Assembly: GCA_951802425.1 (NCBI GenBank)
Contig: OX637794.1
Span: forward strand, 3,906,001 to 3,970,000
From: Clavaria fumosa
Taxonomy: Eukaryota > Basidiomycota > Agaricomycetes > Agaricales > Clavariaceae
DNA: 64,000 bases
Direction: 5' to 3'
Shown here: positions 11,142 through 44,590 of the stretch, piece after piece
How the letters are laid out: every line of letters begins with the position of its first letter
Numbering within the stretch: the stretch's first letter is position 1
Position numbers and translations under genes: made by a program
Notes under the pieces: model-generated
Seen by the model: the letters and a program-made list of their open reading frames with translations, nothing else
Databases searched by the model: none
What the model was told of the DNA's origin: nothing

Positions 11142-12697
11142 ATGGAAAACTTCGACACTCTCGTTTTCCAGAATGCAGCCCAGGTGATGATGGAGGCACG
11201 GGTCATGGCGCCGGGTGAGGAATTGCCGGAGCGGGGGCAGGACAGTGAGTATGCGGAGTGGGTGCAGATGTATGGGGGTGATGCAGTATGTGGTGTTTCT
11301 TTCTTTCTTTTTCACTTTGCACTGACAAGTTTTCAGGATGATTTCCTTGCCGGCTATGTTGCCGCAATCAACGATGACGTGGAAGTGGACGAAGGACTTG
11401 TCCTCGTTGCACGAAGGCTCAAAAAGTGGCGAAGGCTCCATGGGGACGAATGGACCGCTGAGCGGAGGAGGAAACAGGAGGAGGCCGAAGCCGAACAGGA
11501 ACGTGTGGACGAGGAGAGGGCGGCCGCCGAGAGGGCCGCAGCGGAGGCGGAGGCGGAGGAGAGGCGGATGGAGGCGACGAGAGCTGCCGAGAAGAGGGCG
11601 CGCCTTATCGTGATCAGTGACAGCGACGACGATGGCGGGGCGGCGGCGGCGGCAACAACAACGACAGGAGCGGAGGAGCCTGCTGCAGCGGCGGCGGCAA
11701 CAATAACGATATCGCAGGATGTCACAGAGCTGCATGCGGACGAGGTGGCGACTGCAGAGGTAGAGACAGGAGAGGTGCATGTGGCAACGGCAGAAGATCG
11801 GGACGGTCATCGGACCGTGTGGGGAACCGATGGGGTGACGCCTGTCGGTGTTATCGAAGCGGCAGCAGTGAGTGCGGTGCCGCCCCCCATGTTGGAGCAT
11901 CGGGCGGGTGGGCGGATGACGGCGACACCGGTGTGGGTGGAGATCGCGAGGGGAGTAGCGGAGAAACGACGACGAGGGAGGACCGGAGCGGGAGCAGACG
12001 TCAGGTCCCGGGCTGTGCGACAGCCTGGAGATGAGGTAAGTGGTCGATTAAAATGTGTGAAGGTTTTTAGGTGTCTGATCTAATGAGTAGGAACACGATC
12101 TGGCTTGCAAGGAGTGCGCCCGGAAGTGGCGCACGTGCTACGGAGTGGAGGGGGTAGTGTGCCGGTGGTGCCGGACTTATAAGGTATTGTGCAGTGTATC
12201 GGCTGTATGAGGTAAGTAGTAGTGGATTCTTTCTGTAGTGGGGTGATGAGCCAACTGATCGGTGTGTTTCAGGAGTGAAAACTGAGAAGGCAGCGGTGTC
12301 CGGAATCAGAGGTAAGTCAAGAAAGTACTGGATCTGTGATAGCTAACATAGTGGAGCAGGTGCGAAGGCGGCAGAGGCGAGCGGCAGCAAGAGGCCAAGG
12401 CGAGGTGCGACGCGGGCACCGGTTCGCAAGGAGATGATGCTGGAGGAGGAGGAGGAGGAGGAGGATGAGATCGAAGACGACGACAGCGTGGAGCTGGTGG
12501 AGGAGCCGCCGGCAAAGAGGAAGAAGGCGGAGGCAGGTCCCAGCCGAAAGGGAAAGGAGCGGGAGATGGCGCCAGGCGTGTCCGGATGGAAGGCACTGGA
12601 GAGAGCGCTCAAGATGATGGAGAGGGGGGCGGATCAGGTGAAGGCTGGGGCGGAGCTTCTCTGGATGCTCCTTCTCAGCGAGTTGTTTACTGTATAA
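11142..12697 (+). CDS. zcA: antisense accessory gene of Ty3-A, coiled-coil protein with a six-cysteine cluster
   Basis: Proposed exons: 11142-11285, 11337-12035, 12091-12193 (or 12211), 12273-12311 and 12360-12697, giving about 440 residues. Introns of 48-79 bp have GT-AG ends, and the phases fit throughout. The first two introns are phase 0. Exon 2 holds a Glu/Ala/Arg-rich helix (about residues 90-150), an acidic ISDSDDDGG stretch and Ala/Thr tracts. Exon 3 holds Cys 287, 290, 297, 305, 308 and 315 spaced C-x2-C-x6-C-x7-C-x2-C-x6-C. Exon 5 has a polyacidic run, a basic PAKRKK (possible nuclear signal) and an amphipathic helix (ALERALKMMERG). The gene starts 160 bp inside the LTR and ends 232 bp from the pol stop, tail to tail with it. 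If the strong gtaagt donor at 12212 is used, an in-frame TGA (12208-12210) precedes it; the weaker donor gtgtat at 12194 avoids the stop in the same phase. Function unknown; the cluster suggests zinc and nucleic-acid binding. Confidence 0.75.
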
Positions 12698-12929
12698 ATG
12701 TTTTCTGTTTTCTTTTTTTTTTTTTTTTGAATGGAGTGGAATGTTGTGTGGGAAAAGTGAGTTAGAGGGCGAGGGTGTAAGGAAAAGGTTAAAAGAACAT
12801 TGGGTATGAGGTTTGGAATTGTCCGAAATTTCCTTTTTTTTTTTTTGTTTTTTTTTTTGTTGGACGTTTGGGCGTTGATCAAATCAATGAAAATTATGGG
12901 AAAATAAAGGATACAATAGAGAAAGATGC

Positions 12930-13924
12930 TTAACGGCGAGGCCGAAGTTTTCGGGTTGTTCTGGAGTGTTGCAGACGAGTTTCCGGAGCGTCGGTATCGG
13001 CAGCTTCATTGTCGGATTCATCAGATAGTTCGGCAGCTTGGCTTTCCCTATCTCTGGTATCGATGGAGTTATGTGAGGCCTCGTGTGTTTGATAGCATGA
13101 GATGTCCTCGTTTATCTCCGTCATTTGGTCGATGATAGATGTGACCGGAATCGATGTTTGTGACCATGGATAGTAGGGAATGATGCAGAAAGCTGCATAG
13201 TGGATCTTTGAGACGGCGCTGTCGAGTTCTGAGAGAATATATGCACCATATTGAGTTCGGCAAACAACGATCATCGGTCCGAAGAATTGTGGTTTGTCTT
13301 TCGGTTTAGTTCCATTTCTATGGCTGAGTTGTGGATCAATACTAGCGATCCGGGTTTGAAATTGTAGTCGATAATGGAGTTCCGGTGTGCGTCAATGAAC
13401 TGCTTGACAGATTGTTTTTGGGCAGCAAGTACTTTATCAGCGATCGTCGCTAGATCTTCTTCTCATTTTTGTAGTTGGCGGGCTCGAAGGGTTATCAGTT
13501 CCGCAGTAGTCATCGGGGCATCGGCGGTCGGAATTAGATATGTTGCTTTGGATATGTCAAAAGGGAAAAGCAGTTCAATGCTGTGTGCAATGTAAAATGG
13601 AGAGTGACCAGTGGATTGTTGGATTGTGGTTCGTTCTGCCCAAATGACTGAGGGTAACACATCCGGCCATTTCGATTCGTCTCCGTCTGCTGCTTTGATT
13701 AATGACTCGCAGACTGACCGGTGGGCACGTTCGATGACTCCGTTAGCACAGGAGTTATATCCGGAGATACAGATGTGACAGATTCCATACCTTTTCTTGA
13801 GGAAATCGAGGGCCTTGATAAATGGGGTACCATTATCCGTAATGATCTCTTCTACTGCTCCCCATCAGCATAATATATCTTCAAATATGAAGGTTCTGAG
13901 AAGTTGGGCGGTCTCGTTTCGTAG
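12930..13924 (-). pseudogene. Ty3-A integrase, C-terminal half and pol tail
   Basis: Continues the integrase split by Ty3-C1. It has the second catalytic Asp in EIITDNGTPF, the Glu in NGVIERAHRS, then VIWAERTTIQQSTGHSPFYI and the tail GPMIVVCRTQYGAYILSELD. It ends with an acidic then basic C-terminus at the stop at 12930. Lesions include a TGA at about 13863 after EDILC (CGA to TGA) and a stop before EEDLATIAD. No chromodomain is visible after the tail, unlike in Ty3-B, C and D. Confidence 0.85.
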
Positions 13925-13929
13925 CGGTC

Positions 13930-14218
13930 TGTTAGGATCGCTTATGTAAGCCATCCCAAAGTGCAGTTGTGGAGAAACTGGGGAGGGTTGTTGGAAGGTC
14001 ACATGACCTGTGGCTGTGGTCAGATTACATAATCGTAAGATCACATGACCTGGGCCTGGGCGCATCACGTGATCCGAGGGTCCGAGCATGGGAACGCCGG
14101 CAAGTGCCGAAGCGTTCGCTATATATACTGCATCCTTTCCATTTTTGTACTCTTTTCCCCTTATCTTAGTATTGTCGTCATGACCTTACGCTTAAGTTGT
14201 GTGAGACCCAGTCTGATA
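13930..14218 (+). repeat. Ty3-C1 5' LTR
   Basis: The partner of 19253-19541. It contains several tcacatgacc and cacgtgat (E-box-like) words and a TATATATA run at 14120-14127, which would serve as the promoter of the element. The internal region starts taatactaagatccgcc; I could not name the tRNA primer. Confidence 0.93.
14120..14127 (+). promoter_or_regulatory. TATA box of the C-family LTR
   Basis: TATATATA lies about 90 bp before the LTR end and is repeated at 19443-19450. In the minus-strand C3 left LTR, a tatatata run near 53220 corresponds to it. Confidence 0.5.
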
Positions 14219-14792
14219 TAATACTAAGATCCGCCTGTCCGCCCTAGCCCCGTGTCCTAACCTGGCTAGCCTGGACCCTTAATTTCAAACTGTGACACGT
14301 TGTCACAGCTCAGCCCCTATCATCCTCTTCTCCTTTACCCTGCCCGCGGTGTGTAACAGAACCGCGCGAAATTTTTACTGTGTGTAGATACACATGACCA
14401 GACCCAGAGGAAGTCAACTGTGACCCTCCCCAAGTGATACCGAGTGCCCAAGGCCCGGAACTTTGTTTTACAGCTACGTACCAGTGAATCGTGTAGTGTA
14501 CAGGGCAAGGAAAGGCCCCTACATAGTCTTTCTGTAGTTTCCTGGTCCAGTGGACAGGGCCCTTGCTCTGTGACCATTGTCAGAAGGGCGCACGGGCAAC
14601 TCATTAGGAGTTGTGGAGCAACCACCTGGGACACCATTTGGGCCCCACGTTAACAAAAGTTTCATAGAATAAGAGTTCTATAGGTACATAAGTACACAGA
14701 AGAGCAGCCTAAGAGGACAGGACTGTTAAGAGATCAAAGAAATCCTGAGTGCCCAAGGCCCAGAACTTTATTTACAGCATCCAGGGCCTGTG

Positions 14793-15581
14793 ATGGCAGA
14801 CCATGTCGCCCTGCCTGTAGCCCAACCTATGAGGCTTGACCTATCTGTTGCCCCCTTTGATGGGCAGAAAAGGAACTTCCGTACATTCCTCTGATCCCTT
14901 TGCCTCCTGTTTATGGCGAACCCGACTGTCTATGCTGTGGACCTGGTGAAGGTCCTTTTTGCTCTGAGCAAAATTACTGGAGAAGGATTCGCTGCAGAGT
15001 GGGCAAATATGAAGGCGGAAGAGATCCTGGGTAGTGGCGAGGCCAGAACCTGGGCAGAGTTTGTGGAGGAGATGAAGCGCACATTCGATGACCCGAATGA
15101 CCATGCGACTGCCCTTGCCGATATTGCAGGGCTGAAACAGGGTGCCATGACAGCACCAGAGTTCTTCGCGAAATTTGAGACGCTGTTCCGACGGGCAAAG
15201 TTGAGTGCAGAGAAGGACTCAGGAATCCTAGTCCATTGGCTGGAGTTGAACCTGAGTAGGAGGTTGGTGGAGAGAATCTATGGTGTCTCCCTGATGCCAG
15301 AGACATATGGAGAATGGAAGGTGCTGGCTGAGAGGCTTGATGCCCAGCAAAGGCGACTGGATGGGATACTCACGGAACGGACACCGCAACCCACTGTGAC
15401 CCCCGCGCGACCCACCGCGACCCTACTGCGACCTGCCGTGACCATTTCACAACCTCTTGTGACCCCTCTGCTGTGTACTCCAGATGTGGCCATGGCCCGA
15501 GGATGGGCCCCTGCTGATGAGAGATGTTGTTTCCGATGCCACCAGACTGGCCATGCTGTCCGTTTTCTGCCCCCTGCCTGA
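14793..15581 (+). pseudogene. Ty3-C1 gag
   Basis: Starts MADHVALPVAQPMRLDLSVA and continues through the capsid-like helices (AAEWANMKAEEILG, TWAEFVEEMKRTF, GAMTAPEFFAKFETLF) to a CCHC-type knuckle CFRCHQTGHAV. An in-frame TGA at 14892-14894 replaces the Arg codon (CGG) seen in the C3 copy. One extra T near 15570 shifts the frame inside the knuckle, so its last cysteine is lost and translation would stop at 15581. Confidence 0.9.
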
Positions 15582-16428
15582 TATGCATCTGCAGGCCCCA
15601 AGGGCCCAAACCCGGGCAGCACCATGTGCCCCCCAAATGGCGGAGGGATATGAGAAAGAGATTGCATGGCTCCGAGCCTGCATAGAGCTGTGTGAGAGAG
15701 AGAGGAGGACTCCCACTGGGGAGAAGAAGTGTGCCAGCCCCCTTTCCGTCCCTGTGCCTGCTGCAAGTATACCCTGATATACTATCTTGCAGCAGAGACA
15801 TACCTGAATTGGGGCTGAGGTGAAGGAGGAAGTGAGACTGGCAGAGCGCCTAACCAGAGTGCGGCCAGAAGTGTGGAAACATGTGCCATGAGAGCTAGCC
15901 ATCCAGGTGCACTTGGAGGCTTTCAGCACTGGCAAAGGGACCACAATGAAGGCCCTTGTTGACTCAGGGTGCACCAACTGCTTCATGGATTTGGAGTGGG
16001 CGAAAGGAGTGGGACTGGAGCCATCTCTCCTGCTGAACCCAATCACCATGTATAATGTGGATGGGACACAGAACAGGAATGGAAAGGTCCGGTATGGGAT
16101 AGAGGTGCTGGTGAGAGTTGGTGACCACCAGGAGCGGATCCACTTTCTGCTGGGAAAGACCCAGTCCCACAAGGTCATCCTTGGGCATGACTGGCTCAAG
16201 CAGCATAACCCGGATATCGACTGGCAGAAGGCGGAGCTGAGCCTTACCTGCTGCCCCCCACAGTGTTCCCCATCCCCTCGAGCCCCTGCACCCCTGAAAA
16301 CGAGTACCCTCGCATCCACGAGTATTCTGGACACCCGTTTTCCCAACTCTGGCCCTACCCCCGATTGGCCCAGCTGCTACCCTTTGGTGTTTAGTGAAGC
16401 GAAGTGGGATGAACTTCCCTGCTCCTGA
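15582..16428 (+). pseudogene. Ty3-C1 gag tail and aspartic protease
   Basis: In the shifted frame the gag tail continues (PLPDMHLQAPRAQTR). After two TGA codons and a third at CATGTGCCATGA it reaches the retropepsin: ALVDSGCTNCFMDLEWA (about 15950-16000) and VILGHDWLKQHNPDIDW. Comparison with C2 shows that the TGA before IGAEVKEEV and the one before ELAIQVHLEA both stand where C2 has CGA. A lost A in the run near 16455 shifts frame again before the RT. Confidence 0.88.
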
Positions 16429-16493
16429 CCAGACTTCGATATTAAGATCGAGTTCAAAAGGACCCTGAGCACCTCTCCTCCAAGCTGTATTCT

Positions 16494-19241
16494 TTGACAC
16501 AGCAGGAGATGGTGGAGATGAACCGTTGGGTGGATGAGCAGCTTGCTTCTGGACGAATCCGGCCCTCAAAATCCCTGTATGCCAGCCCCTTCTTCTTCAA
16601 ACATGAGAAGGACAAACTGTGGCCAATCATCGACTACTCGAGGCTGAATGCACACCTGATCAAGGACAAGTACCCCCTCCCCCGCATCCGAGACACAGTG
16701 GATGTGCTTAAAGGAGCGTCAATCTACTCTAAGATTGATGCAAAGGGAGGTTTCCCATCTATGCAGGTCTGGCCCGAGCACCAGCACCGCTGCGCCTTCC
16801 TGACACCCCGTGGACTCTTCGAACCAGCTGTCATGTGGTTTGGACTGCAGAATGCCCCTGCTACCTTCCAATGCTTCATGAATCATGTGTTGAGGGAGGA
16901 GATTGCAGGAGGACATGTGAGGGCCTATGTGGATGATGTCATTGTGTTTGCAGAGGACTTGGCTACACACCGGTACTGGATGGATCAGGTCTTGAGGAAG
17001 TTTGGAGAGAATGGGTTGTGTCTCAAACTCAGTAAATGTGAGTTTGAGAAGAGTGAGATCATCTTCCTGGGGATGAAGATCTCCCACAACAGACTAGAGC
17101 ATGATCCGGCCAAGGGTGCGGCAGTCCGAGATTGGCCACGTCCTAAGAATGTGAAGGATGTCCAGAGGTTCAATGGGATGCTGAACTACCCCCGCCAGCA
17201 CATCCCAAATCTTTCTGCCTGGGCAAAGCCACTCTTCCAGCTGACTGGGAATGTTCCGTGGAAATGGGAGGAGGAGGAGGAAGCAGCCTTTCGAGATCTC
17301 TGCCAGGCACTCGTATCGGCCCCAGTCTTGGCTCTGCCTCAGGACAAAGGGAGATGGAAGGTAGAGACAGATGCAAGCAACCTGGCAACTGGTGGAGTGC
17401 TCTCGCAGCTGCAGACGGATGGAACCTGGAGAGTTGTTGACTATATCTCCAAGGCCCTCACTGCAGCTGAGAAGAACTACAATGTGTACGACAAGGAGTT
17501 CTTGGCTGTGATTCGGGCACTTCGCGAGTGGCGAGCATACCTCATTGGAGCAGAGGAGACGATTGAGATCTGGACAGACCATGCAAACCTCCAGTACTTC
17601 CGGAAGCCCCAGAAGTTGAAGCCGAGGCAGGTTTGTTGGGTTGGAGAGCTCCAGTGCTTTGACTTTGAGATAAAGTACCGCACTGGCAAGTCAAATACAA
17701 AGGCAGATGCACTCTCCCGGAGACCGGACTATGGAGAGATGGTGGAGGAGGATGCACCGGTGCAGGTTTTCCCGGAAATGGAAGTCCATGTGTCATTCAC
17801 ATCGGAAATGGAGACGCTACTCCAGAAAAATAGCGCGGTACACACACAGAAGCCAGAGGAGCTTGATGATGAGTGGACACGAGATCATGCTGGACTCTGG
17901 CGAAAGGGGATAGTCACTTGGGTCCCCCTAGGAGCTTGTGAGGCCGTTCTCGAGTTTGAGCATGACCTCCCCACTGCTGGACACCCTGGGCCCCGGAAGT
18001 TGAGAGCAGCACTAGTGAAGGGTTATTGGTGGCCAGACATGGTAAAAGATGCAGATCGGTATGCTCAGGGGTGCGAGACTTGCCAGCGGATGAAGCCTGA
18101 CCGTACCAAGCATGCTGCCCCACTGCACCCCCATCTGGTGCCTGATGGTCCCTGGTCGGTGATCTCATGGGACATAGTCGGTCCCCTCCCCCTCTCCCGT
18201 GGACATAATGCCATCCTTGTTATTGTTGACAAATTCATGAAATGGACACTGCTTGAAGTGATCGGGCTCGACCTCACAGGACTTGGAGTGGCACGTCTCC
18301 TCCGGGATCAAGTGTTTTGTGACCATGGAGTCCCTCACAAGGTTGTGAGTGACTGGGGGTCCCAGTTCGTGTCCTGCTTCATGAAGGAGTTCTACTCCAT
18401 GATCTGGGTAAAGGCAAATCCAAGTACTGCCTTTCATCCACAGACTGATGGACAGATGGAATGGGCGAACCAGGAGATGGAGATCTATCTCCGGGCTTAC
18501 GTGGACCATCTCCAGGATGACTGGGCTGAATGGTTGTCCACTGCAGAGTTTGCTCTTAATAATCGTGAGCACTCAGCGACAGGACAGACACCTTTCTTCC
18601 TCGATTATGGATGACACCCATGGAATGGGGGGCTCCGGCCACCTTCTGAGGTGAACCCGGCGGCAGACGAGTGGATGGCTAAGCTCACGGAGTCCTGAAG
18701 AGCAGCCAAGGAGGCAATGGAGAAAGCGGTGGCAGCAATGAAGAAGAGCTACGATAAGGGGAAACGCCCAAGTTGGGAGTACTCTGAGGGAGATCTGGTC
18801 TGGCTGGATACTAGAAACTTGAAGATGGACCGGCCCTGTAAAAAGCTTGACAACAAGAGAGCAGGCCCCTTTGCAGTTGAGGAGAAGGTGGGACCTGCTG
18901 GGTATCACCTCAAGCTCCCTCGGGCCTGGCGCATCCATTGGGTCTTCAATGAGTTGCTGTTGACACCATACCATCCCCCTTCCTTCCCTTCTCAGAACCT
19001 GCCTCCCCCTCTGCCCCCTACGATTGATGATGACCACCTGGAGTATGATGTGGAGGTGATCCTTGATGTTAAGAAGGTGGGATGTGGGGTGAAGTACTTG
19101 GTGAAGTGGTTGGGATATCCAGTGGAGGAAAACACTTGGGAGCCCCATAGGAACCTCACTAACGTAATGTTGCTTCTCTGGGACTTCTTCCTCTCCCACC
19201 CTGACAAGGCCAAGCTAGCTGGTTGGGACGCCCAGCCTTAA
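16494..19241 (+). pseudogene. Ty3-C1 pol: RT, RNase H, integrase, chromodomain
   Basis: A long open stretch (16494-18614) has RT (PIIDYSRLNAHLIKDKYPLP, AYVDDVIVF), RNase H (VETDASNLATGG, KALTAAEKNYNVYDKEFLA), an integrase zinc finger (CETCQRMK) and a core with SWDIVGPLPL, VVSDWGSQF and a WANQEMEIYL helix. In the core the usual DG is DW and TERAN is MEWAN. A TGA at 18612-18614 falls where Trp is expected (YG-stop-HPW). A second TGA lies near 18697. The chromodomain (EYDVEVILDVKKVG, YLVKWLGYPVEENTWEP) closes the protein at 19239-19241. Confidence 0.92.
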
Positions 19242-19252
19242 GAGGGGGGTGA

Positions 19253-19541
19253 TGTTAGGATCGCTTATGTAAGCCATCCCAAAGTGCAGTTGTGGAGAAA
19301 CTGGGGAGGGTTGTTGGAAGGTCACATGACCTGTGGCTGTGGTCAGATTACATAATCGTAAGATCACATGACCTGGGCCTGGGCGCATCACGTGATCCGA
19401 GGGTCCGAGCGTGGGAACGCCGGCAAGGGCCGAAGCGTTCGCTATATATACTGCGTCCTTTCCATTTTTGTACTCTTTTCCCCTTATCTTAGTATTGTCA
19501 TCATGACCTTACGCTTAAGTTGTGTGAGACCCAGTCTGATA
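19253..19541 (+). repeat. Ty3-C1 3' LTR
   Basis: The 289-bp partner of 13930-14218, directly followed by the CGGTC target duplication, after which the Ty3-A integrase resumes. Confidence 0.93.
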
Positions 19542-19546
19542 CGGTC

Positions 19547-20735
19547 TTGCTTCTGGATATGTGAATAATGAACATCGGGCATGGACAAGGAGGCAAAAAC
19601 CGCAAGCCCTGGGTAGGAACATGGTGTCAATGTGCACTCAATGGAAAAGACCAGCCAGGGTGGCAACTGTCGGTGGAATAAAAATCTTCCGGATTTGTCG
19701 GGTCTGACACTGGTGACAAGTACGGACAAACCATTTTACGTCTTGATCCAACACCAGCCACCAGAACCGATTTAAGATATGCGTCCAGATAACGTAAACA
19801 CCTTTGTGGCCAAGTGAATCGTGTGACTCAGTGATAATTCCAAGCCGCTTGTGGTCCGGAGGTACTACCTGGTGGCATCCGTTAGGTCAGTGATGCCATA
19901 GCTTGTCATCAAGGATGAAGAAGTTGGATGCGGAGCGGACTAATCGTCGGAACTGGTTTGCGTTGATGCCAGATGGATGGATCGGGTTTCGAAGGAAAGA
20001 TTCAATTTTGCGGATCTGGTCTTCTCTTTTCTTGGCTGCATCTGACTGAGGGATAAGAATGGTGGAGGATTTATTGGGGGCTGGTGGATCATCGGATGGT
20101 ACCGTCGAGTTGAGTAGCATCAATCCTGTGGGAGGTTGGAAGCCAGTATGAGCAAGACCGGAGGGGGGTGCATCAGATGGGTAGTGAGATTTCGGTGTTC
20201 GATTCATGTATTCCATAGTGAACATGTAGCTCCGATCGATCCACTCTTCATGATCTTCGGACTCGGTGTCTTCCTCACCATCTCCGGCACATCAGCGTGA
20301 TAATCCGTCAGCTCCGGTATGTTTATCTGCAGGGATGTGAACAAGGTCGAAATCGAAAAGTAGTATACTGGCAATCCATTGATTCATGGCAGCATTTGGC
20401 TGAATGTCTGGGTTGTTTAGCATACCCTTAATAAATTTGGCGTCCATTTCGACAGTGAATTTTGGAAGGCCGACAAGGTAAATCCGGTACGATCGAAGGG
20501 TGCGAAACAGTCCATATAACTCGATTTTTGCTTGAGAGTATCGGGCCTCACGTTTGTTCCAGGTTATCGATCCGAACCTAGATGGGTACCGGATTCCATC
20601 TTCTCCTGTTTGAAATAGCGCAAAGCTGACGGCGATGTTGGACGAGTCAACGGCCATAATAACGGGCCATCCAGAGCGGTAATTGATTGGTCGAACAGTG
20701 GATGAGTTGACTATTGCATCTTTAAGTTGGTCCAT
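19547..20735 (-). pseudogene. Ty3-A RNase H and integrase N-terminal half
   Basis: RNase H (20292-20735) reads IMAVDSSNIAVSFALFQTG, YSQAKIELYGLFRTLR and HIPADKHTGADGLSR. It is followed by a spacer and the integrase zinc-binding region (SHDSLGHKGVYVIWTHIL ... CHQCQ) and the first catalytic Asp (GVHIDTMFLP). The frame is cut at 19542 by Ty3-C1 and resumes at 13924. TGA codons after GLSR and after LWHH are both consistent with CGA to TGA. Confidence 0.87.
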
Positions 20736-22283
20736 CGAATTTTGCTCTTCTTCTTCGAACTTGAATGGAACGTCTTTACGGGTTAGGCTGACAAGTGGTT
20801 GGGCAAGTACGGCATAGTTTTTAATGAATATCCGGAGCAGTCCACAAATGCCTAAAAATGATCTGACATCTGTGAGTGTTTCGCATGGAGGCCAGTTTCA
20901 GATGCGTTGAACATTGGAAGCATCCGGAACTCGCCCTTCGTATGTGCATGTGTGTCTGGTAACAATTGTTTCGGGGGTGCAAATTGTCGTTTTCTTGCCA
21001 TTAAAGGTTCCTCCAACTATCTTGACTCATTGGAGCACCTGGTTGACGTCATTCAAATGCTCCCAAACGAACTGCCATATTTGCGGATTCTCCAGAATTG
21101 TTTCATAAGTGCCGTCCAGAAGCTCATATCAGGTTTCCGGGCCTTTAATCGCTACATCATCCACAAATGGAATGGTTACGTGCGGAATTTCGTCTTGCAG
21201 GATATGCATGATGTCTCCGTGCATAATTTGCATCGCATTGGTGTATCCCATTGGGATGCAAGTGAGCCGTTTGGCTCCGAGAGGGGTTTGAAATGTGGTA
21301 AGGTCTCGGCTTTGCTCGTCGAGAGATCGTTGATCGAAGGAGATGAATAAATCGAGTGTTCCGTAGCATCCACGTCTGGCGAATGATTCCGCAAAAACCT
21401 CCATTATCGGGGGAACCACGGAGTTGCCGATTGTGACTTTGTTCAATGGCTGGAGGTTATGTACGAGTCGGAGAGACTTTCCGTCCTTCTTTAACATGCA
21501 AAACCACTGGGACCAATAGGAGGAGTTGGACTCTTCGTAGACTCCGGCTGCTATCTTGTCTCGGATAACCTTCAGGACTTCGTCATAGATGCCGGGAGGA
21601 ATCGGTATATTTTTGAAGACCCAAGGAACATGTTCAACTGTCGGGATGATAATCGGATCGAAGTATTTTGCATCGAATCGCCCCTTTTCGGTCTCCGTCC
21701 AAGCGAAGGCATCTTCCTGGGCTTTAATAAGATAGTGAACAAGTTTTTCTTTGTCCGGCCATAAAAATCCGGTGGGGTTTGTGTTATGCACATCTTTCCG
21801 GTCTTGAGTATATCGGAGACCAGGGGTGAAATCGGGGGGGTGTGTTGGAAGAATCGGTATATCGGCTAGGGGTTCCAGATGCCGGCGTCGAACAATCTGG
21901 AATTCTTTGGGTACTATTGCTTTGATCGGATTGACACGATTCGCCACTTTCTTATATTTCTTTCCTAGGTAAACTGGCAAGACGGTGTCTGTGGACGGGA
22001 AATTCATTTCGGAAGTTTTGTTGTACAAGGGGTATACCACATTCGGATGTGTCGGTTCACATCCGACAGCGACTGGGGAATCAACGGAATGGAGAGAAAT
22101 GTCTGAGACTCTGATATGAGGAAGGGGATCAAGAGGGGCTAAATTTGCAAAGGAAGACGATGAGGGATTCTGAATGGAAGTGGAAAAGATGGCTGGAGTC
22201 TCGTATTTGGGTATAGTTTCCGTGTCCGCACTGATCGGAGGTAAGTCCATAGATTTGTGGATGTTCGAGGCTCCAGCCATCAA
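20736..22283 (-). pseudogene. Ty3-A reverse transcriptase
   Basis: Starts from a linker (KKYKKVANRVNPIKA) and runs through ESNSSYWSQWFCMLKKDGKS, LRLVHNLQPLNKVTI, GTLDLFISFDQRSLD and the catalytic FVDDVAIKGP. A TGA directly after GPET (21127-21129) replaces an Arg codon. The RT thumb and the start of RNase H follow in 20736-21126, with further lesions. The YxDD box is of the FVDD type and keeps both Asp residues. Confidence 0.88.
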
Positions 22284-22384
22284 AAATCCGGATCTGGTTT
22301 CTTGTTATTTTTGTGGACTGGGATTCACTCTTTTGTTGGCACTATGATTTGTTCTCCTGTGTTTGGATTGTTTAGAATGAGGTC

Positions 22385-23335
22385 CTAGGCTCCATGGGGA
22401 TGATTGATTGTTTGCAAGCTGGTTAGCATAAAAAATGGTCGTCTGATGAGAACTTCGCAGGGCAGCATGTCTGCTACTTGCATCTGAACGTGAAACGTGC
22501 ATGGACCGATCTGCAATGGAAAGTTCTTAATGAGTCCGAGCATCAGAGCGATGGTGCCATGGGATGATTCCATGTGGATTACTCGTTCAGAGTGCAGCAG
22601 ATTGCCGAGCTTTTCCCAAACATCTCGCCTCATTGCGACAATAGAGCTACCCTGGTCGAGAAGACACTCCGCTGTGATCCGGCCATCTAGAATGCCCTCA
22701 ACGATGCGGAGTGGAGCAGCATCGACTGCGACAATGAGATCGGAGGTATCCGGGGCCGTAATGTTCGTGTATAGCGTATCCTGTACAATGGAAGCAGTGA
22801 CTGGAACACGGCGGGTGGTAACCATATCCTTCATCTTTTTATGGACATCTCCAGAAATGGCGAGTAATTCACGGGGTGTCACATGGACCGGAATGTCAAG
22901 TGCGTGATCGAAAACTTGTTGAACGGTTACTGGATTTTCTATTGAAGCTTGGTAATGATACTGGACGTCGGATCGTTTGATTCTTTCCGGCTTCGATGGG
23001 TGCATGACCGGAGGCGAGGTAATGACAACAGCGGGCGGAGGAGGTAGCCTAGATGGCTGTGGATCGTTATTCCGGGGTGCGGGCACTTTCCTTTTGCCCT
23101 TATCTATTTTCTTTGCCACATCGTTCGCAAAGGTGCAAGCCATATTTTCCCAGGCAATCCTCTCGCCATCTTCTTCGTACGAATCGTCTTCCATATCTGG
23201 GGGATTTACAAATGATCCGGTCGGCTGTGCTTCAAATACCGCAGTAGTTGCCGGTTGCGTGTTCTGGGATTGGTAAGTAGCGTAGTACTTGTCAAAGCGC
23301 TCGGATAGGTTGTTCCCTATGATAGTGCCGGGCAA
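22385..23335 (-). pseudogene. Ty3-A aspartic protease region
   Basis: A linker (YYATYQSQNTQPATTAVF) is followed by a Pro-rich spacer and the retropepsin (ITAECLLDQGSSIVAMRRDV) with a DQGS active site in place of DTG/DSG. It continues to LPCEVLIRRPFFML. The stop at 22385 and the frame change to the RT frame at 22283 separate the two blocks. Confidence 0.8.
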
Positions 23336-23338
23336 GTA

Positions 23339-24272
23339 TCATCCGGGGGGAAGGCAAATCCTGCCTTCGGTGTTCTGTATACATTTACCGGACTTGATGT
23401 ATTCGAGAGCTTTCGGACAAGTACTAACGAAATGACCTAGTTCCGAACAGAAGTTACACGTCCGATTTGTAGGGGAATTTGTGGTCCGAGCAGCGGAACG
23501 TTTTGCTGGTTCAGGGGACTGAGCTGATAAAATTGATTCCAGGTGAGCCATTGTAGAAGCAAATGTCGCCAAGGCCGCGGACATGTCGAGTTCTTCCTTT
23601 TTGACCACTGGTTTCGGTTCCCTTCCGGGGGCTGCAGATGCGAAGCAGATGGGTCCGGAGAATTGATCGGTTGTCACGGAGTGTGGGGATGTTGAGGAGA
23701 GTAGAAATTCGGCTGCGGCATGAACCTCATTCATTGGGTATGGGTCCTCTGGATGGTGATTAGGTAGTATAATTGTGAGCTGGCTCTCGATCCGGCGCCT
23801 AGTATGATCCCCAAATCCAAGGATGTAAAGCCGGTTCCTATCATTGGTGGACATACGTTGTGAACTGATCAGATGCGAGGTGATCCGAAGAAAGTCCCAG
23901 TGGTATTCTCCGTGTTCTGCGCGCATGTAAACCCCTTTTTGGGCCAAGTCTGAATATGAAACGGTCCAAATCGGCAACAGAAAACAAACAGCCGCCATTG
24001 GAACCTGGATAAAGGCGTCGGACAGCCGCTTTGAAGGTATCCCTAGTCCATTCCGGGTGTGGGTCGGGTGTGAGAGTCTCCCAAAGAAGACATGTGTCAG
24101 TATCAAGGTAATGCTTTGCGTACTGAATTAAATCGGTCTCCGGAACGTCTGGATTAATGCCGGTTAGTACGATGTCGATGTCCTCAAAGTCCTGGTTAAG
24201 GTGCATTGGTACTCCGTCAAAGGCAGGGGCCCTGTGAGCGCCACGGAGCGGATATCTTGGTTGATTAGCCAT
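23339..24272 (-). pseudogene. Ty3-A gag
   Basis: The first in-frame ATG (24272) gives MANQPRYPLRGAHRAPAF, then the capsid-like region (LDTDTCLLWETLTPDPHPEW) and a CCHC knuckle CNFCSELGHFVSTCP near 23440. The frame is open upstream to the LTR without an ATG, so 24272 is my chosen start. A one-base change near 23957 shifts frame between DLDRFI and SDLAQKGVYM. Confidence 0.85.
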
Positions 24273-24652
24273 TTGTATTGGTGCGTAGGGTGATAGGTGA
24301 ACTTCATCTGGTGAATTCTGAGGTGTTTCTGGTGGGAAGCGAAGGATGCTCGATTTGAGGGGGAGTGGTGTAAGTGGTTCTTCGAAGATCTGTGGTAATG
24401 TGGTAACCGGGGTGGCGAAGCTCGTGTGGGAGTAAACAATGGATGAAATACTGGGAATGTCCAATGGAAGAAAGTGGGAAGTTTCAATTACTTCTCCAGG
24501 AGGTTCGGAATGCGGTGGTTCTGTGATCGGATTCGGGTTTCGAGTTCTCAGGTGTTCGGAGCATCGAGGCTGGAAAGTGGAGGAGCCTCTGGGAATCCTC
24601 GAAGGCTGTAGTGAAGACGTTGTTATGACCCCCTCACGGTGGGCTCCAAAAT

Positions 24653-25494
24653 TGTAGTAGGCTGTACAGGTGTTGGCTGCAAATAGATGTTTGTGGCCGG
24701 GTTCTTCAGGGGGTCTTGTTACAGGACGGAAACACTAAACAGAACCTTGGAGGATGTGGAGGTTGAGTGCAAAAAGTTCAGAGAATATAAATATACATTG
24801 TCCGGAGTATCCGGTATCAGATCCGATAGAGTCCAATGTCCGGATTGAAAGTTCAAGGGGCCGGCGACGACGAAGGCCAGCGGATCAATAGGTACGATGA
24901 AGGGTGAGCTTGCTAAAGATCAGAGCACGATGTGGGTGTTCCAAAAGCTGGATTACCATAGAACCTGGTATGTACTTAAGTACATTTTCGTAAGTACAGC
25001 AAATCCGGTTCTACGGAAGTTTCCGGAAGCTACAGAAGGTAATGCGGTATCGTGTGCAAGGTCATATAGAGGTCATGGATCATAGAAGAGTTATGCGGTT
25101 CGGAGGAATGAAGTGTCCGATGATCGGCATACATCCGGACTGCTCGTAAAATGAAGGAGAGTGAGGCTGGTACAGCAAAGGGGTACTAGGAACAATGGAC
25201 AAAGCAAGCATGTATATGAAATAGAGGAATGAGAATGGAATAGTGAGTATGTCGAGCGCTGACCATGCTGGAGTGATGAAATAGAGGGGTGTAGGCAGTG
25301 TGTGTGACCTGTGGGCTGTGATCTTCATGGGGAATCGGAGACTGGAGAGTCCGATGTCGGATAAGTATCAGATGTTATCAGACGGTGTCAGATTGTTATC
25401 GGATCGTATCGGACGCAATTGCCTTGGATCCTGAAATATCCGGATGGTCGGTATCTGTCATGTTTCTATGTTTAAACCACATATTATCCTTACA
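24653..25494 (-). repeat. Ty3-A 5' LTR
   Basis: The 842-bp direct repeat of 10140-10981. Differences between the two are mainly C/T and G/A, often at CpG. Confidence 0.92.
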
Positions 25495-25552
25495 ATGAGT
25501 AGACATCTTTCAAACCCCCCCACATGTTTACCTTGAAGAACTCGATTAGAGA

Positions 25553-27112: not shown

Positions 27113-27284
27113 CAGCTGGGCCAATCGGGGGTGGGGCCAGAGTTGGGAAAATGGGTGTCCAGAATACTCGCAGATGTGAGGTACTTGTTTTCAGGGGTGC
27201 AGGGGCTTGTGGGGATGGAGAGCACTGTGTGGGGCAATGGGTAAGGCTCAGCTCTGCCTTTTTCCAGTCAATGTCAGGGTTATG

Positions 27285-30773: not shown

Positions 30774-30778
30774 CAAAC

Positions 30779-32192: not shown

Positions 32193-32699
32193 TCAAATAC
32201 AGTCTACCAGCATCACTTTGCACACCACCACCACTTTACACACCAATAGCAAAGATCACCTATTTTTGCCCAGATCCCTTGTGAATTTTTTTCAGAGATT
32301 GCAACCTATTATATCTACCTTCTTGCCAAATTCAGCTGGATTGAATGAATCAATGAGAAGTGACATGCGTATTAGCCAGTTGGGTCACTTTTGTTTCAAG
32401 ATTTTTGCCACTTCATCACATTTTATGGCTTCAAGATTGGATTGAGTCAAAATAGAACTTATTCCTGTATAAACTCATCCCTCATCTGGAAGCAATCCAA
32501 GCAAAATGAGAGTCCTAAAGCAGGATCAACGTTTAACGTGACGGTGTGCATCAAACGCATGCTTCTTCACATGTCAACCCATTCCATCGGAACCCTCCGG
32601 CCTGAACTCACCTTCCTATTCCCTACCGAGCGCTGTCAGAACATGTCAAAGCTCAAATTAAGAGCCATGCCAAGGATACAATGCTGCAGGATGCAGTTG
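32193..32699. other. No gene recognised
   Basis: A plus-strand frame of about 120 codons (32391-32759) has no motif I can place. The region may be flank of the pogo-like remnant. Confidence 0.35.
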
Positions 32700-33705
32700 A
32701 TGCCTACCATCATGAGCAGACAAAGGAGTCTCACATGTGCAGGAGTGCATGGCAAATAGCAAAGGAATACGGATAGAGTCTCAGTGGAGAACAATAATTA
32801 ACAGGTGTAATGGGGGAAGGAGTATCCAAGAGGCACATGAAGAGCAGCAGAAGCTCACACCTGCTGAAGAAGCGAAGCTGTTATTGTAAGCTGCATCAAG
32901 GAATCAGCAGATCGAAGCTTCCCAATGACCCTGAACAACATTGAACAACACACAAACCTGGTCCAAAATAACTGCCTTGGGACTAGATCTGAACAAATGG
33001 GAGAGAGCTGGGCAGGGCAGTTCTTGGATCGACATTGGGACGTGCTCCAAACCCACTGGAGCAAGCTGCTTGACACACAACATGCACGAGCCCTGAATCC
33101 TGAAACCAAGAAATGTTGGTTTGAGCTGGTGGAGAAGTTTGTTGTGAACAGAAACCAGACCTGAAGACTTGTATGGAATGGATGAGAGTGGATTCCCCCC
33201 TTCAGACCAGGGAGTATTACGGTAGTGGGTGGACGAGGCACGAAAACACAGCATAAAGAGAACAAACCCAAGACTGACTGAGCTACACTCTTTCCTGGAG
33301 GCCTTGGAAGACATTTAACAGACCCCGAGTTTGGTGAACAACTAAGAGCACACAACTAGAAGAAAGAGGACGAAGCTGCTGCAAAGGCAAGGCGAGCTGC
33401 AGGGCGAAAGAGTAAAAAAGCTGCAAAGCAAGTGGTCGAGCTTGAGTGGAAGGCAATGATGGCCCTGTACAACCAGGATATCGAGGCATGGATGGCGGAA
33501 TGTGAGAGATTGCAGGTTGCAAAAGTCTGTGCAAAAGACTTACCACCTCGACCCAAGCGCCCACTGAAGCTGAAACTAGTGTTAGAAGATTCAATGTTGC
33601 ACCCAGACACTGTTGGAGAGCATGAGGATGAAGAGGTTGCAAGCTCAGATGATGACAAGCAAATGTTCCTGTGGCTGTGCAGAGTGACTGTTTGTACGGT
33701 GTAGT
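32700..33705 (+). pseudogene. Pogo-like (Tc1/mariner superfamily) transposase, internally deleted
   Basis: With three frame shifts the strand reads an N-terminal helix-turn-helix (AWQIAKEYG, then RCNGGRSIQEAHEEQQKLTP), a CENP-B-type DNA-binding half (ESWAGQFLDRHWDVLQTHWS, LNPETKKCWFELVEKFVV) and the start of the DDE domain (LYGMDESGFPPSDQG). It then jumps to a basic C-terminal part (AAAKARRAAGRKSKKAAKQV, DIEAWMAECERL). The middle of the catalytic domain, with the second and third acidic residues, is missing. I see no terminal inverted repeats. Confidence 0.75.
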
Positions 33706-34009
33706 CCTCTGTGGCTCCAATTCTCAATTTATTGCTACACTTGTCTGTGAGCATCCTAAAATTACAGAAAAATGCTCTTTGGTATCCCTACATATTCTAG
33801 AATGTTTCTGTAAGCTCTAAATTAAAGATTTCAGTGCTGTTTCCAGTACAGCATGAAGAAACAACAAATGGTGTGCAAAGTGATGCCAGCAGACTGTAGT
33901 GCTTTTCCCCAGGGCCATTTTAATCAGCAAAACAGCAGCTCATCCTCTAGTTGCTTGGCATATTTTTAAAAAAAATGGCATTGCAAACAAGACGATCAGA
34001 ATTGGTATT

Positions 34010-35494
34010 ACAAACAAATCAATGTTTGGCCTGACAGACAGTGGTGACACACACGCGAAATATTATGAGACATTGTATGTGTTGCAAGGAGCATTCCAAG
34101 CCTTGCTTGCAGCTGCAGGGCTGCCAAACCAAAGGTGCGAACCCCAGCCAATAACACTTCCATCAGCTGCCTGGGGCAGTGTAGCATTGGCAATCTTCAC
34201 ATCCTTCTCAACAGTAAATCCACAAGGGCAGAAAGCCTTGTATATGCCTGCCCTCTGGCCAATTGTAGTGAATGTCATTGAGCGAAGGACAGTGCATTTC
34301 GGGCACTGAAGCAGAATGAGCTTGCCGAGAGGGTGGAGGGTCTTGTGGCACCAGAAGAATTCGAGCCGAAAGCTGGGGCTGAGAGTTATAAGTGAGGTGT
34401 GCACCCCAAGGCCTTCTTCCTCCTTGAGTAAATCGGGGACGATCCTACTGATTGAGAAACATTTGATGTAAGTTTTGACTGTGAGCTTCATCAGAAACAG
34501 CATGGCCAGGTGTGGGTAGAAATTTGGTTGGCCAAAGCCAATGATCCAGTTGAAGGATTCACTGTGTGTTTTTTAATTGAATGTCTGAGTATATGGCAGT
34601 GGACTCACCTTTTGGCATATGTTTTGATTGCCTGATTTGCCTCAGGAATCTCCCAGACTTGGCCACAGACCAGCATAACCAGGATTGAGTGCGATTCCTT
34701 TGCAAACAATTTTACATCTGCACTGATAATTTCTTCCAAGAACTAAGAGCCATCAGATAAAAAAGCCATAAAATCCAACTAAGGCTGTACCTGACCAATC
34801 TCCAATCCAATGCCAGGAGCACAGTGCAAATCTCCATTATTGGGATTTGAATGGGTGTATAAAAAGATGATTAGGCATTGCACACCCAAACTGCAAAGGC
34901 TGTTACTAACAGCCTGTTAGTATTATGTATGTACAATAATGTAAAGAATTACCCTCAAAGTTTTCCTACAAAGCCCTGTAGGATTGCTTGGTGTGTTTCA
35001 AGTGATTTGCCATCCTTGGGATTGACATCAAGTGTTATGTCACATTTGAGGAGTTCTTGTCCATTGGAGGTGTCAGTGAACCAGCCCCCAATGTTGTTGG
35101 CAACAGAATAGAATGGATCGCCCCTGCGAGGGATGTTGGAAACGCAAATGTTCACCATCACAAGGGAGTTGGTGTTTTGGCACATGTAGTTACTGCGAAG
35201 AGTGGGGGCCTTGATCCAGCCAATCAAGTCCTTCATTGGCTTTCCCCAGAGATAGAGGGGCTTTAAAATGTTATTGTAAAAAAAGGCTGAGTAGGTGGAA
35301 TCTCAGATGCGCTCTACCTCGTAGGGGTTTTTGCAGTTTTCAGATGAGATGTGGCAGGCAGGACATTTGAACTTGACTTCTTGTCTTGCTATAGCAGCTT
35401 CCCCACAGGGAATCTGGAAGTATTCATTACAGATTGTTCTTTCACAGAAATCACAGTCGATTGAATCGCCGCTGTTACCACAGCCAGAACACCA
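34010..35494 (-). pseudogene. PHD-finger-like, Cys-rich gene of unknown function, spliced and decayed
   Basis: From right to left the minus strand shows a PHD-like cysteine pattern (WCSGCGNSGDSIDCDFCERT ... FKCPACH) after a plausible acceptor (ctactatag). A middle part follows (KDLIGWIKAPTLRSNYMC, IPRRGDPFYSVANNIGGWF). A third part (EEIISADVKLFAKESHSIL, VCGQVWEIPEA) joins in phase through a GTGAGT...CACACAG intron to FNWIIGFGQPNFYPHLAML. A zinc-ribbon-like end (LLQCPKCTVLRSM ... FCPCGFTVEK) closes it. Stops at about 35303 and 34960 and unmatched phases show decay. I recognise only the architecture, a Cys-rich N-terminus with a CPxC ribbon C-terminus, as recurring in agaricomycete genomes. Function unknown. 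Confidence 0.5.
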
Positions 35495-35786
35495 CTATAG
35501 TAGGATCACAACAAAGATCAGGATGAATTATTAAGCAATAATTTAAAATCTTTACAAACCCTATCATTCCTGGCGGTGTCTACCTTCTGTTGGCATAATC
35601 AGTGCTGGGCATAGGTGCACGATGGCTTAAGCTTACTGGCATGGGTTTGTCCATTGGAATTTGGGGGCTGAGCTTACTGTGGGTTGGGAGCCTTAGTTGC
35701 ACCCTGATTGAGTGACCGCCGGTTGTCTTCTTCGGATTCTGCTTAGTTCTTGCCATGTTCTCTCATGTGTGCACAATGTTGAGGTT

Positions 35787-36485
35787 TGTCAAGAGTAGGT
35801 CAATTCCACCAAAATACAAGTGTAAATGACAGTGAGGGGGGGTGTGGCGGTAACTCCGACGGTGAAAGGGAACTCCGCACGTGGGCCACGACAATGGGGA
35901 GAGGCGCAGGTACAACAGGAGAAGGTGGGAGGTAGCGGGACGACACAAGGAGGGGTTTTGACCTGGGGACCGCACGAGAAGGTGGCTGCTATGCGACGCC
36001 CAGTCAAGTACCTAAGGCGGCTCTTGACAGCGATCCTTGCACGTAAGTGGGTAATCGAGTTTATGTCATATGCTGTAGTATCTACTACAGCTCTGAGGTT
36101 TATATAGTAGGTAAATATCTAAAATGGGATAGTATCGAAGAAGATCTACAAAGAAGAGGTCCTAAAACAAATATCAAGAAATTGTCCGGAAACACGTTTC
36201 AGCCACCGTATCCAGACCCCAAAGCCTAATATCGTCGATGTGCCTTCGTTAGCTCGTCTAGAGGCCACTTTGCAGGTCCTAAACCGACTCCACTCATTCC
36301 CAAGGCTTCCCAACGTCGGCCGAACAACAGCGAAGCCCGCGGAGTCCGTCGGAATTACGGTCCGCATGCGGAATTGCCGATTGTAGGTTCGGGGCGATCG
36401 TCAAGTGGCGGAATTGAGTCGGAAGCGGTCATCGAGTGTGAAGACGTGTCGGGCGGCCCGTAACGGGGAGTGTTGGGTCGTGACA
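35787..36485 (-). repeat. Ty3-B 3' LTR
   Basis: The 699-bp partner of 44591-45289. On the coding (minus) strand it has a TATATAAA box (36106-36099), next to a perfect 9-bp-arm palindrome (gctgtagtatctactacagc, 36072-36091). Both features are kept in the other LTR. Confidence 0.93.
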
Positions 36486-36618
36486 GTACCTCCTCCCTAG
36501 GAGCCGAGCTCCTGCGAGGCAGACCCATACGTGACCAGTCACGTGATTCCGTTGATTCACGGTGGTGCTCGATTTTCTTTTTCTGTAGAGTTGCGCCTCT
36601 CTGTCCCATTGCAACACC

Positions 36619-37809
36619 ATGGCACCTACTCTCCACCCCCTCCTTCCTCTTCTGCGTGAAATCGTCGCCGAGTTCCAAACCCGGCATTCACAGATGGCAG
36701 AGAGGTCTCTCCCCCCCCAAACGGACCTGCAGGCGGAATTCGAGGCAGTGACGGAGGTGTGGGAGCTGCGAGTGTGGGCGGACGATGCGCAGCGATTGGT
36801 GGTAAGTCACCCAATCCCCCTGACTCTAATGCTGATACAATAGTACTGCCATAGGACCGCTGTAGGCAGTATACGGCTTTTGCTGCGGCGGAAGGGGATG
36901 TTGTTGAGTCCGAGGGGCAGCTGGAGGCGGCGGAGCGGGCGATCGTCAACGCCTGCGATTTTCTGAGGAAAGTCGACGATGCGTGCGCGGAGTGGGCAGC
37001 GGAGGTAGAGCGGGCGCACCAAGAGGAAGAAGCAGAGGAAGCACGGAGGGAAGAGGAGCGCGAGCGGAACATGCAGCGCGAGGAGGAGGAGGCAGCAGCG
37101 GTGGCGACTGAGGCGGCGGCGGCGGCGGAGACTGAGGCGGCGGTGGCCGCCTGCGTTCCCACGTCGGAGGAGCGCAGGCGAAGCGAGGACGTCCGGCGAC
37201 AACAGGACGCATCGGCACGCGACACGGGCGATGGGGAGATCGAGGAAGTCGACGCCGAGGGCTATCGGTACGCCTGCCTCGGGTTCCTCGAGACGTGCAC
37301 GCGGCGGGAAGGGCGGACATTGGTGGATGGGAAGGTAAGTAATTTTAATCAAGAGAAAAAGTTCTAACGTAATATTTTGTAGGATAAGGTGTTGGTCTTG
37401 CGGGACCCCCTCTGCGAACGCTGCGCGTTCGCGAGCGTACGGTGCATCGGGGTCGTGGAGACGTCGTGCGACTGGTGCGTGCGGCAAAAACGGTCGTGCA
37501 ATGTGCTGGGTGGCAAGTCGCTCAAGCGGGGTCGGAAGCGGGCACAAGGGCCCCGTCGCTGGGCCGAGTCGGGTGCGGCGGCCGGTGGTGGTCATACCCC
37601 CGGCCCCGCAGACCGTGCAGCAATGGGAGGCGCGGAGGCGACGGCAGCGGTTCCTGCCCGGTGAGGCGGACGACCTCCGCCTCACCGATAGCCTGCAGTC
37701 GATACAGTCGGCGTGCGTGACGCTCATGCGTGGGTTCGCCCAGCTGAATGACGCCTTCGGGGACATGAAGCAGGTGATCGAAGAGCGGGAGTACAACGTG
37801 TCAGACTGA
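36619..37809 (+). CDS. zcB: antisense accessory gene of Ty3-B, coiled-coil protein with a six-cysteine cluster
   Basis: ATG at 36619 lies 133 bp inside the LTR. Exons are 36619-36801, 36855-37334 and 37383 onward; both introns (53 and 48 bp, gtaagt donors, CTAAT/CTAAC branch sites) are phase 0. Exon 1 encodes 61 residues. Exon 2 (160 residues) is helical and charged (VERAHQEEEAEEARREEE). Exon 3 has Cys 232, 235, 242, 250, 253 and 260, spaced C-x2-C-x6-C-x7-C-x2-C-x6-C, followed by a basic SLKRGRKR. The frame then stops at 37662-37664. An overlapping +1 frame runs on with VQQWEARRRRQR and an amphipathic helix (LQSIQSACVTLMRGFAQ) to a stop at 37807-37809, so a one-base shift near 37540-37570 probably separates the real C-terminus. 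Zn2Cys6-type spacing suggests DNA binding, but the usual basic residue between Cys 2 and Cys 3 and the loop proline are absent. Confidence 0.75.
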
Positions 37810-44567: not shown

Positions 44568-44590
44568 CTGCGGCACAGCATACGACATAC

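What the first reader, a model, noticed from the sequence alone, without database searches (positions are those of the whole stretch)
11142..37809. Two different gypsy elements carry the same kind of antisense gene: coiled coil plus a Zn2Cys6-spaced cysteine cluster
Ty3-A and Ty3-B differ in LTR length and sequence, gag, protease motif and pol frame. Yet each has a plus-strand gene (11142-12697; 36619-37809) between the pol end and the 3' LTR, opposite to gag-pol. Shared traits seen in sequence: start 160 and 133 bp inside the LTR; tail-to-tail with pol; two phase-0 short introns in the same order; a charged helical exon 2; and an exon 3 with exactly C-x2-C-x6-C-x7-C-x2-C-x6-C followed by basic residues and a C-terminal amphipathic helix. 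The spacing satisfies the fungal Zn2Cys6 pattern, though typical basic and proline positions are missing. An element-borne DNA- or chromatin-binding factor could control LTR transcription, target choice or host silencing. I do not know of a description in fungal gypsy elements; plants have unrelated antisense ORFs in some gypsy lineages.
Basis: partly seen in the sequence, partly recalled or inferred. Interest (0 to 1): 0.92.

Follow-up and report, generated by a model that had tools for sequence, protein, structure and literature searches.

The report
Antisense zinc-cluster gene in fungal retrotransposons
Hundreds of copies of three kinds of retrotransposon in this fungal genome carry, back to front, the same sort of extra gene for a protein with what looks like a rearranged fungal zinc-cluster (DNA-binding type) domain, kept working by natural selection, which suggests that these parasites bring their own gene regulator.

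Summary
[quoted passage not shown] Both window copies are broken (in-frame stop in A, frame break in B); intact copies exist elsewhere. The gene lies antisense 3' of pol at 130 of 139 A-type and 16 of 16 B-type pol ends. A third, intron-less type, D, lies so at 87 of 134 listed related chromovirus pol ends. In-frame dN/dS is 0.26 (A), 0.37 (B), 0.44 (D); the other same-strand frames give 0.64-1.22. The Cys domain scores better against Pfam Zn_clus with its halves swapped (7 of 7 strings); genuine domains score worse (3 of 3): it looks like a half-exchanged Zn2Cys6. LTRs of A1 and D, not B, hold CGG arrays of about 10-bp period. Best reading: an element-encoded, HBZ-like regulator of its own LTR; inferred, without RNA or binding data. 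Antisense genes in this place are known in plants and in Boty (brtn), so this is a new variant of a known kind.

The parts
10140..10981 (-). 3' LTR of element A (gypsy; its relative L069 shows no Chromo match); its inner end adjoins the antisense gene
10799..10900 (.). U3 stretch of the A LTR with CGG/TCGGA-type sites; in A1 copies a 10-bp iterated TATCGG-type array (decayed here)
11142..11285 (+). gene A exon 1
   Evidence: GT/AG borders of introns 1 and 2 kept in 32 of 32 copies
11337..12035 (+). gene A exon 2, highly charged
12091..12211 (+). gene A exon 3 with the Cys cluster (12106-12192); this copy has an in-frame stop at 12208-12210
12273..12311 (+). gene A exon 4
12360..12697 (+). gene A exon 5: acidic stretch, basic stretch, C-terminal amphipathic helix
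12900..13929 (-). element A, 3' part of pol (integrase end); approximate start
   Evidence: (L039)
13930..19541 (+). nested gypsy element C (LTRs 98.6% identical); lacks the antisense gene: last pol-frame stop 19241, LTR from 19253
19542..24464 (-). element A, rest of pol and gag
24653..25494 (-). 5' LTR of element A
35787..36485 (-). 3' LTR of element B (chromovirus)
36619..36801 (+). gene B exon 1
36855..37334 (+). gene B exon 2, charged amphipathic helix
37383..37664 (+). gene B exon 3, frame of the Cys cluster (37413-37499) up to its stop in this copy
37665..37809 (+). gene B, C-terminal helix, in another frame in this copy; one frame with the cluster in L013, L016, L017, L018, L020
38207..42781 (-). 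element B pol (RT, RNase H, integrase, chromodomain) and gag zinc-knuckle part
44591..45289 (-). 5' LTR of element B

Best explanation
The gene is an accessory gene of these retrotransposons that encodes a nuclear, zinc-cluster DNA-binding regulator. It is transcribed in antisense from or near the 3' LTR. Its introns survive retrotransposition because the sense genomic RNA, which is copied, carries them only in reverse complement. The protein probably dimerises through its C-terminal helix, binds CGG-type sites in the LTR with a Zn2Cys6-like cluster whose two halves are exchanged, and so controls transcription of the LTR and perhaps of itself, much as the antisense bZIP factor HBZ of HTLV-1 acts on its provirus. 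Shown here: the gene, its exons, its antisense place in three element types, purifying selection, the half-exchange signal. Inferred: expression, zinc and DNA binding, nuclear place, target, and the sign of the effect.
Against: No RNA, protein or binding data. Both structure models are poor (pLDDT 57 and 52); the A model gave no match; rmsd of the B matches is 1.9-10.1. In natural order no whole protein reaches the Zn_clus cut-off, and for A pieces zinc_ribbon_6 scores a little higher than Zn_clus (13.3-13.9 bits, cut-off 27). The period-10 array is not significant in LTR B (146 of 1000), the decayed LTR A (142 of 1000) or D subfamily L085 (none); in L079 it lies mid-LTR, so U3 is not established for D. 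CGGA and TCGGA are also in excess in A and B pol. The mirrored antisense frame is constrained too (A exons 0.32-0.40, B 0.49, D 0.55), and for the B cluster piece it is slightly lower (0.43) than the sense frame (0.45). Only 16 of 25 B exon 3 places and 87 of 150 D places have a listed pol end beside them.
Confidence: 0.55

Rival explanations
1. Anti-silencing factor: the protein binds the element's own DNA and removes or blocks host silencing (as VANC does for VANDAL elements), rather than acting as an ordinary activator or repressor.
For: B copies show, by eye and not counted, amino-acid changes typical of CpG decay (R to W/Q/H), so silencing by methylation is plausible; VANC precedents PMC10398659 and PMC5735166 (search listing with start of abstract only).
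Against: Nothing here separates it from a plain transcription factor.
Confidence: 0.2
2. Accessory protein of the replication cycle: the Cys cluster binds RNA, the pre-integration complex or target chromatin, and serves nuclear import, chaperoning or site choice.
For: PMC7264820 discusses such roles for plant antisense ORFs (nuclear GENE23, SMC domain in ORF2 of PvRetro13). Deletion copies L051 and L062 keep an intact gene though the pol part next to it is missing.
Against: The half-exchanged Zn2Cys6 signal and the CGG arrays point to double-stranded DNA.
Confidence: 0.17
3. The antisense transcript itself, not the protein, is what matters (dsRNA with the sense RNA, or interference).
For: The gene is convergent with pol; antisense transcripts of elements may give dsRNA and siRNA (PMC7264820, part 2).
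Against: In-frame dN/dS 0.26-0.44, kept splice borders and open frames in three element types need a protein.
Confidence: 0.05
4. Artefact: chance ORFs opposite to G+C-rich repeats.
For: Low-complexity Ala/Glu/Arg stretches; some antisense frames are open too, and the mirrored antisense frame is also constrained.
Against: The sense frame is the most constrained over the whole gene in A (15 copies), B (15) and D (20); six Cys and a Lys are invariant among the 8 strings; 233 antisense placements (130 + 16 + 87) against 6 on the same strand (1 for A, 5 for D).
Confidence: 0.03

Closest known systems
brtn of Boty-like gypsy elements (Botrytis, Sclerotinia; Zhao et al. 2011)
   Same: Antisense gene in a fungal gypsy element; Boty is listed under ORFs between pol and 3' LTR (PMC7264820); its gag-pol has a CHROMO domain (PMC4227169, passage).
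   Different: I could not read the primary paper; no zinc cluster is mentioned in the passages seen. Here the gene has introns (A, B), a Cys6 cluster, and sits in at least three element types.
Antisense aORF-3R of plant gypsy elements (Grande gene23, RIRE2, Retand ORF4, PvRetro13 ORF2)
   Same: Place and orientation; present in most copies of a family; some products nuclear (PMC7264820).
   Different: PMC7264820 reports no clear similarity to other proteins, apart from an SMC and a transposase-28 domain; no Zn2Cys6 cluster is mentioned.
HBZ of HTLV-1
   Same: Antisense, with a spliced form, from the 3' LTR; nuclear bZIP factor that counteracts effects of Tax (PMC10186651, passages).
   Different: bZIP, not zinc cluster; a retrovirus; no homology claimed.
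Zn2Cys6 (Zn_clus, PF00172) transcription factors
   Same: Six Cys within the family spacing; Lys at C-x2-C-x3-K-x2-C; fold matches to Gal4, Hap1, Ppr1 and others for the B model.
   Different: The Lys-bearing half is second, not first; score rises when halves are exchanged; encoded by a retrotransposon.
VANC anti-silencing proteins of VANDAL DNA transposons
   Same: Element-encoded, sequence-specific regulators (search listing).
   Different: Different class of element and protein.

Membership tests
Zn2Cys6 (PF00172) | Cys spacing C-x2-C-x6-C-x5-12-C-x2-C-x6-8-C (spacing recalled) | tested here: met
   A and B x7 linker, D x10 linker
Zn2Cys6 (PF00172) | Score above Pfam's cut-off of 21 bits in natural order | tested here: not met
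   A 10.4-11.7 and B 16.2-18.7 bits as pieces; D 20.5 (39 aa), 22.3 (48 aa, over the cut-off) as pieces but 14.8 as ORF; whole A no Zn_clus, whole B 12.4
Zn2Cys6 (PF00172) | Basic C-x2-C-R-x2-K-x2-C triad first (recalled) | tested here: not met
   The Lys is invariant in the second triad of 8 strings; with halves swapped 16.2-30.9 bits
Zn2Cys6 (PF00172) | Fold | tested here: inconclusive
Zn2Cys6 (PF00172) | Binds two zinc ions and CGG DNA | not testable with these tools
   needs protein
Antisense ORF between pol and 3' LTR (aORF-3R) | Antisense to gag-pol, between pol and 3' LTR | tested here: met
   for D the LTR border was read in L079 only
Antisense ORF between pol and 3' LTR (aORF-3R) | In most copies and conserved as a coding sequence | tested here: met
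   D at 87 of 134 listed pol ends, some of which may be gene-free C-type
HBZ-like regulator (works like) | Spliced antisense transcript from the 3' LTR | not testable with these tools
   no RNA reads; only kept splice borders
brtn | Sequence homology to brtn | not tested
   brtn sequence not at hand

The most novel reading that the evidence does not exclude
Fungal gypsy retrotransposons of at least three pol lineages share a transposon-borne class of transcription or anti-silencing factor built on a half-exchanged (circularly permuted) Zn2Cys6 cluster. Factor and CGG arrays in the LTR co-evolve, and the gene has passed between, or outlived, element lineages as a module.
Probability: 0.33. Interest if true: 0.9.

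Novelty: new variant of a known kind. Interest (0 to 1): 0.77.

Why it matters
[quoted passage not shown] Here such a gene has a domain of recognisable kind, hundreds of copies, a very young intact subfamily, and candidate binding sites in LTRs of the same element in two of three types, so the question can be tested directly. If right, it gives retrotransposons their own DNA-binding regulator and adds a rearranged form of the zinc cluster best known from fungal transcription factors.

Tried and rejected
Pol/gene discordance: I first counted chromovirus pol ends at about 48% identity to B as gene-free (0 of the top 42 with A or B exon 3); following one distant A-like pol showed that many carry the D type, so that claim was dropped. 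The window's nested C element does lack the gene. CGGA/TCGGA excess alone was dropped as evidence because A and B pol show it too. A CGG-rich 'B leader' signal was dropped: part of that stretch resembles a D-type LTR (67.5% over 354 columns).

Searches that gave little: two scans of viral contigs, no relative. Protein searches gave only exon-sized, unnamed pieces (4 hits, 1 hit, and 2 besides the query itself). PDB sequence search with the A/B domain: nothing relevant at E up to 10. A exon 3 model: no match in pdb_via; the absence is no evidence. Amphipathicity of the D helices is not significant (249, 389 and 326 of 2000 shuffles as good). Literature: ten searches used; no title or abstract start listed names a zinc-cluster antisense gene in a fungal gypsy element; subscription papers, including Zhao 2011, are not held.

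Rows dropped: one search used 139 of 144 A-pol rows (5 second fragments left out), 25 of 85 B exon 3 rows (3 fragments and 57 A-type rows left out), 16 B-type and the top 42 of 134 C/D-like rows; one search used 134 C/D-like and 150 D rows. These lists are capped (1436 candidates, 150 scored; 163 candidates, 150 scored), so D counts are lower bounds. 5 of 8 fetched Zn_clus loci were not used in the permutation control because the pattern was not in one frame. hhalign used 8 A, 4 B and 6 D proteins. Natural and swapped strings differ a little in length (33-53 against 32-36 residues).
Full report
WHAT WAS CHECKED. The window lies in an unnamed 48.76-Mb genome of 17 contigs (G000:C1:3906001-3970000); the taxon was not established here. 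Element A (10140-25494, minus strand, LTRs 842 bp) is split by a nested element C (13930-19541). Element B (35787-45289, minus strand, LTRs 699 bp, with a chromodomain) has a matching 5-bp target-site duplication. Each has a plus-strand gene between pol and the 3' LTR.

CORRECTIONS. Gene A has five exons. In intact copy L054 it encodes 445 residues. The window's A copy carries an in-frame stop just after the sixth Cys. The window's B copy changes frame between the Cys cluster and the C-terminal helix, which L013, L016, L017, L018 and L020 read in one frame. So neither window copy is intact, but the families have intact members.

COPIES AND CONTEXT. The A cluster exon has 140 matches in the genome, 40 of them with one and the same score (76% identity to the window's); the 18 of these that were fetched are identical in exon 3 at protein level. 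I call this young group A1. The B exon has 85 matches, 25 of them B-type places. Of 32 A loci read in detail, 32 have the A-type LTR upstream and 31 have pol on the opposite strand downstream (L041 is the exception). Genome-wide, 130 of 139 A pol ends have the exon on the opposite strand 3' of pol (median 1183 bp; same-strand control 1, wrong side 0), and 130 of 140 exons have a pol end; 16 of 16 B pol ends have the B exon, but only 16 of 25 B exons have a B pol end. One young copy (L069 with L054) has a 1303-residue pol ORF and an 807-residue ORF with a gag-type zinc knuckle on the other strand, and LTRs identical over the 382 bp compared. In L051 and L062 the pol part next to the gene is missing, yet the gene is intact.

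A THIRD TYPE. Following a distant A-like pol led to L070 and a third gene, D: one exon, 335 residues in L079, charged N-terminal part, C-x2-C-x6-C-x10-C-x2-C-x3-K-x2-C, basic stretch, helical-looking C-terminal part. At least 150 matches (capped); 87 of 134 listed C/D-like pol ends have it antisense 3' of pol (median 1200 bp; same-strand 5), and 63 of the 150 D places have no listed pol end beside them. Its LTR, read in L079 (720 bp), ends 228 bp before the start codon. 10 of 20 D loci are intact.

SELECTION. Nei-Gojobori dN/dS, medians over pairs: A 0.26 (exon 1 0.16, exon 2 0.31, exon 3 0.14, exon 5 0.21) against 1.22 and 1.04 in the other sense frames; B 0.37 against 0.88 and 1.09, with the cluster piece 0.45; D 0.44 against 1.12 and 0.64, cluster 0.32. 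Antisense strand: in A exons 0.32-0.40 in the mirrored frame and above 1.1 in the other two; B 0.83, 0.49 and 1.20 over the gene, and for the B cluster piece the mirrored frame (0.43) is slightly below the sense frame; D 1.30, 0.55 and 0.72. Pol of window A against L069: dS 0.58, dN 0.09. Pairs are not independent, and copies that decayed after insertion raise the ratio. Splice borders: GT in 32 of 32 A copies for all four introns, AG in 32, 32, 31 and 31. Intact A genes: 17 of 32 loci, 16 of them among the 18 A1 loci.

CIS SITES. LTR A1 holds a run of TATCGG-type units every 10 bp: 6 CGG pairs at period 10 against 0.41 (0 of 1000 shuffles). LTR D (L079): 4 against 0.37 (2 of 1000), mid-LTR; a CGG-rich stretch at 42830-43800, partly D-LTR-like, 6 against 0.53 (0 of 1000). 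LTR B 2 against 0.61 (146 of 1000), LTR A, decayed, 1 against 0.15 (142 of 1000), D subfamily L085 none. Four C-type LTRs: 1, 0, 0 and 1 (64, 1000, 1000 and 13 of 1000); only the 13930-19541 element was checked to lack the gene. Among 14 A copies the stretch keeps 5 to 13 CGG/CCG sites; six copies share one 10-nt gap, possibly a single event, and others have gaps of 1, 9 and 15 nt. TCGGA is in excess in LTRs A, A1 and D (0 of 1000) but not B (291 of 1000); A and B pol show an excess too (10 and 6 of 1000). This is suggestive, not decisive.

EVOLUTION. Pol identities: A to B 21-25%, A to C 19-26%, A to D 21-28%; B to D 44-55%, B to C 32-44%, C to D 31-36%. The gene is in A, B and D and absent from the window's C element, so there was at least one loss, or one transfer or second gain; no tree was built.

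HOW IT MAY WORK. Antisense introns can persist in a retrotransposon because the copied sense RNA holds them in reverse complement; that fits an intron-bearing gene in elements of very recent insertion. The A array sits in U3, beside the antisense gene in the 3' LTR and upstream of the sense transcript in the 5' LTR, so one factor could act on both. Whether it activates, represses or lifts silencing is open.

KNOWN RELATIVES. [quoted passage not shown] PMC8365987, PMC4227169 and PMC5987419 (passages) mention brtn. PMC10186651 (passages) gives HBZ and bidirectional LTRs. PMC3411680 (term counts and passages, Laccaria) has no 'antisense' or 'zinc' in its main text. VANC papers were seen only in the listing. 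Hence new variant of a known kind. That similar proteins occur among annotated agaricomycete hypothetical proteins is my recollection and was not tested; the database pieces P0001-P0007 suggest only that the gene exists outside this genome.

Noticed in passing
G000 contig ends (C1, C4 both ends, C5, C7, C10, C11, C12, C13; C14, length not seen): One A copy and two D copies recur at near-constant spacing (7.8-8.0 kb, 11.0 kb on C14, and 9.9-10.0 kb) within about 29-302 kb of contig ends: it looks like a duplicated subtelomeric block.
   Followed up: partly
window 42830-43800: Stretch in the gag/leader part of element B of which 42993-43333 matches a D-type LTR at 67.5%; rich in CGGAGTCCG.
   Followed up: partly
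L051, L062: Copies of the young A1 group in which the pol part next to the antisense gene is missing while the gene is intact.
   Followed up: no
L009-L033 (B copies): By eye, B copies show changes such as R to W/Q/H, typical of CpG decay; the A1 copies read do not in exon 3.
   Followed up: no
G000:C1:1213188 and G000:C4:3682386: A distant relative of the A pol (43% identity; the C4 one with a 1145-codon open frame). Behind the C4 pol end no Cys6 pattern was found on the opposite strand in the 4.5 kb read; the C1 place was not read.
   Followed up: partly
window 6300-6624: Dense tandem repeat with 24-bp period (13 + 11) of CTCCCTCTCACCTCTCCCTCTTGC type.
   Followed up: no
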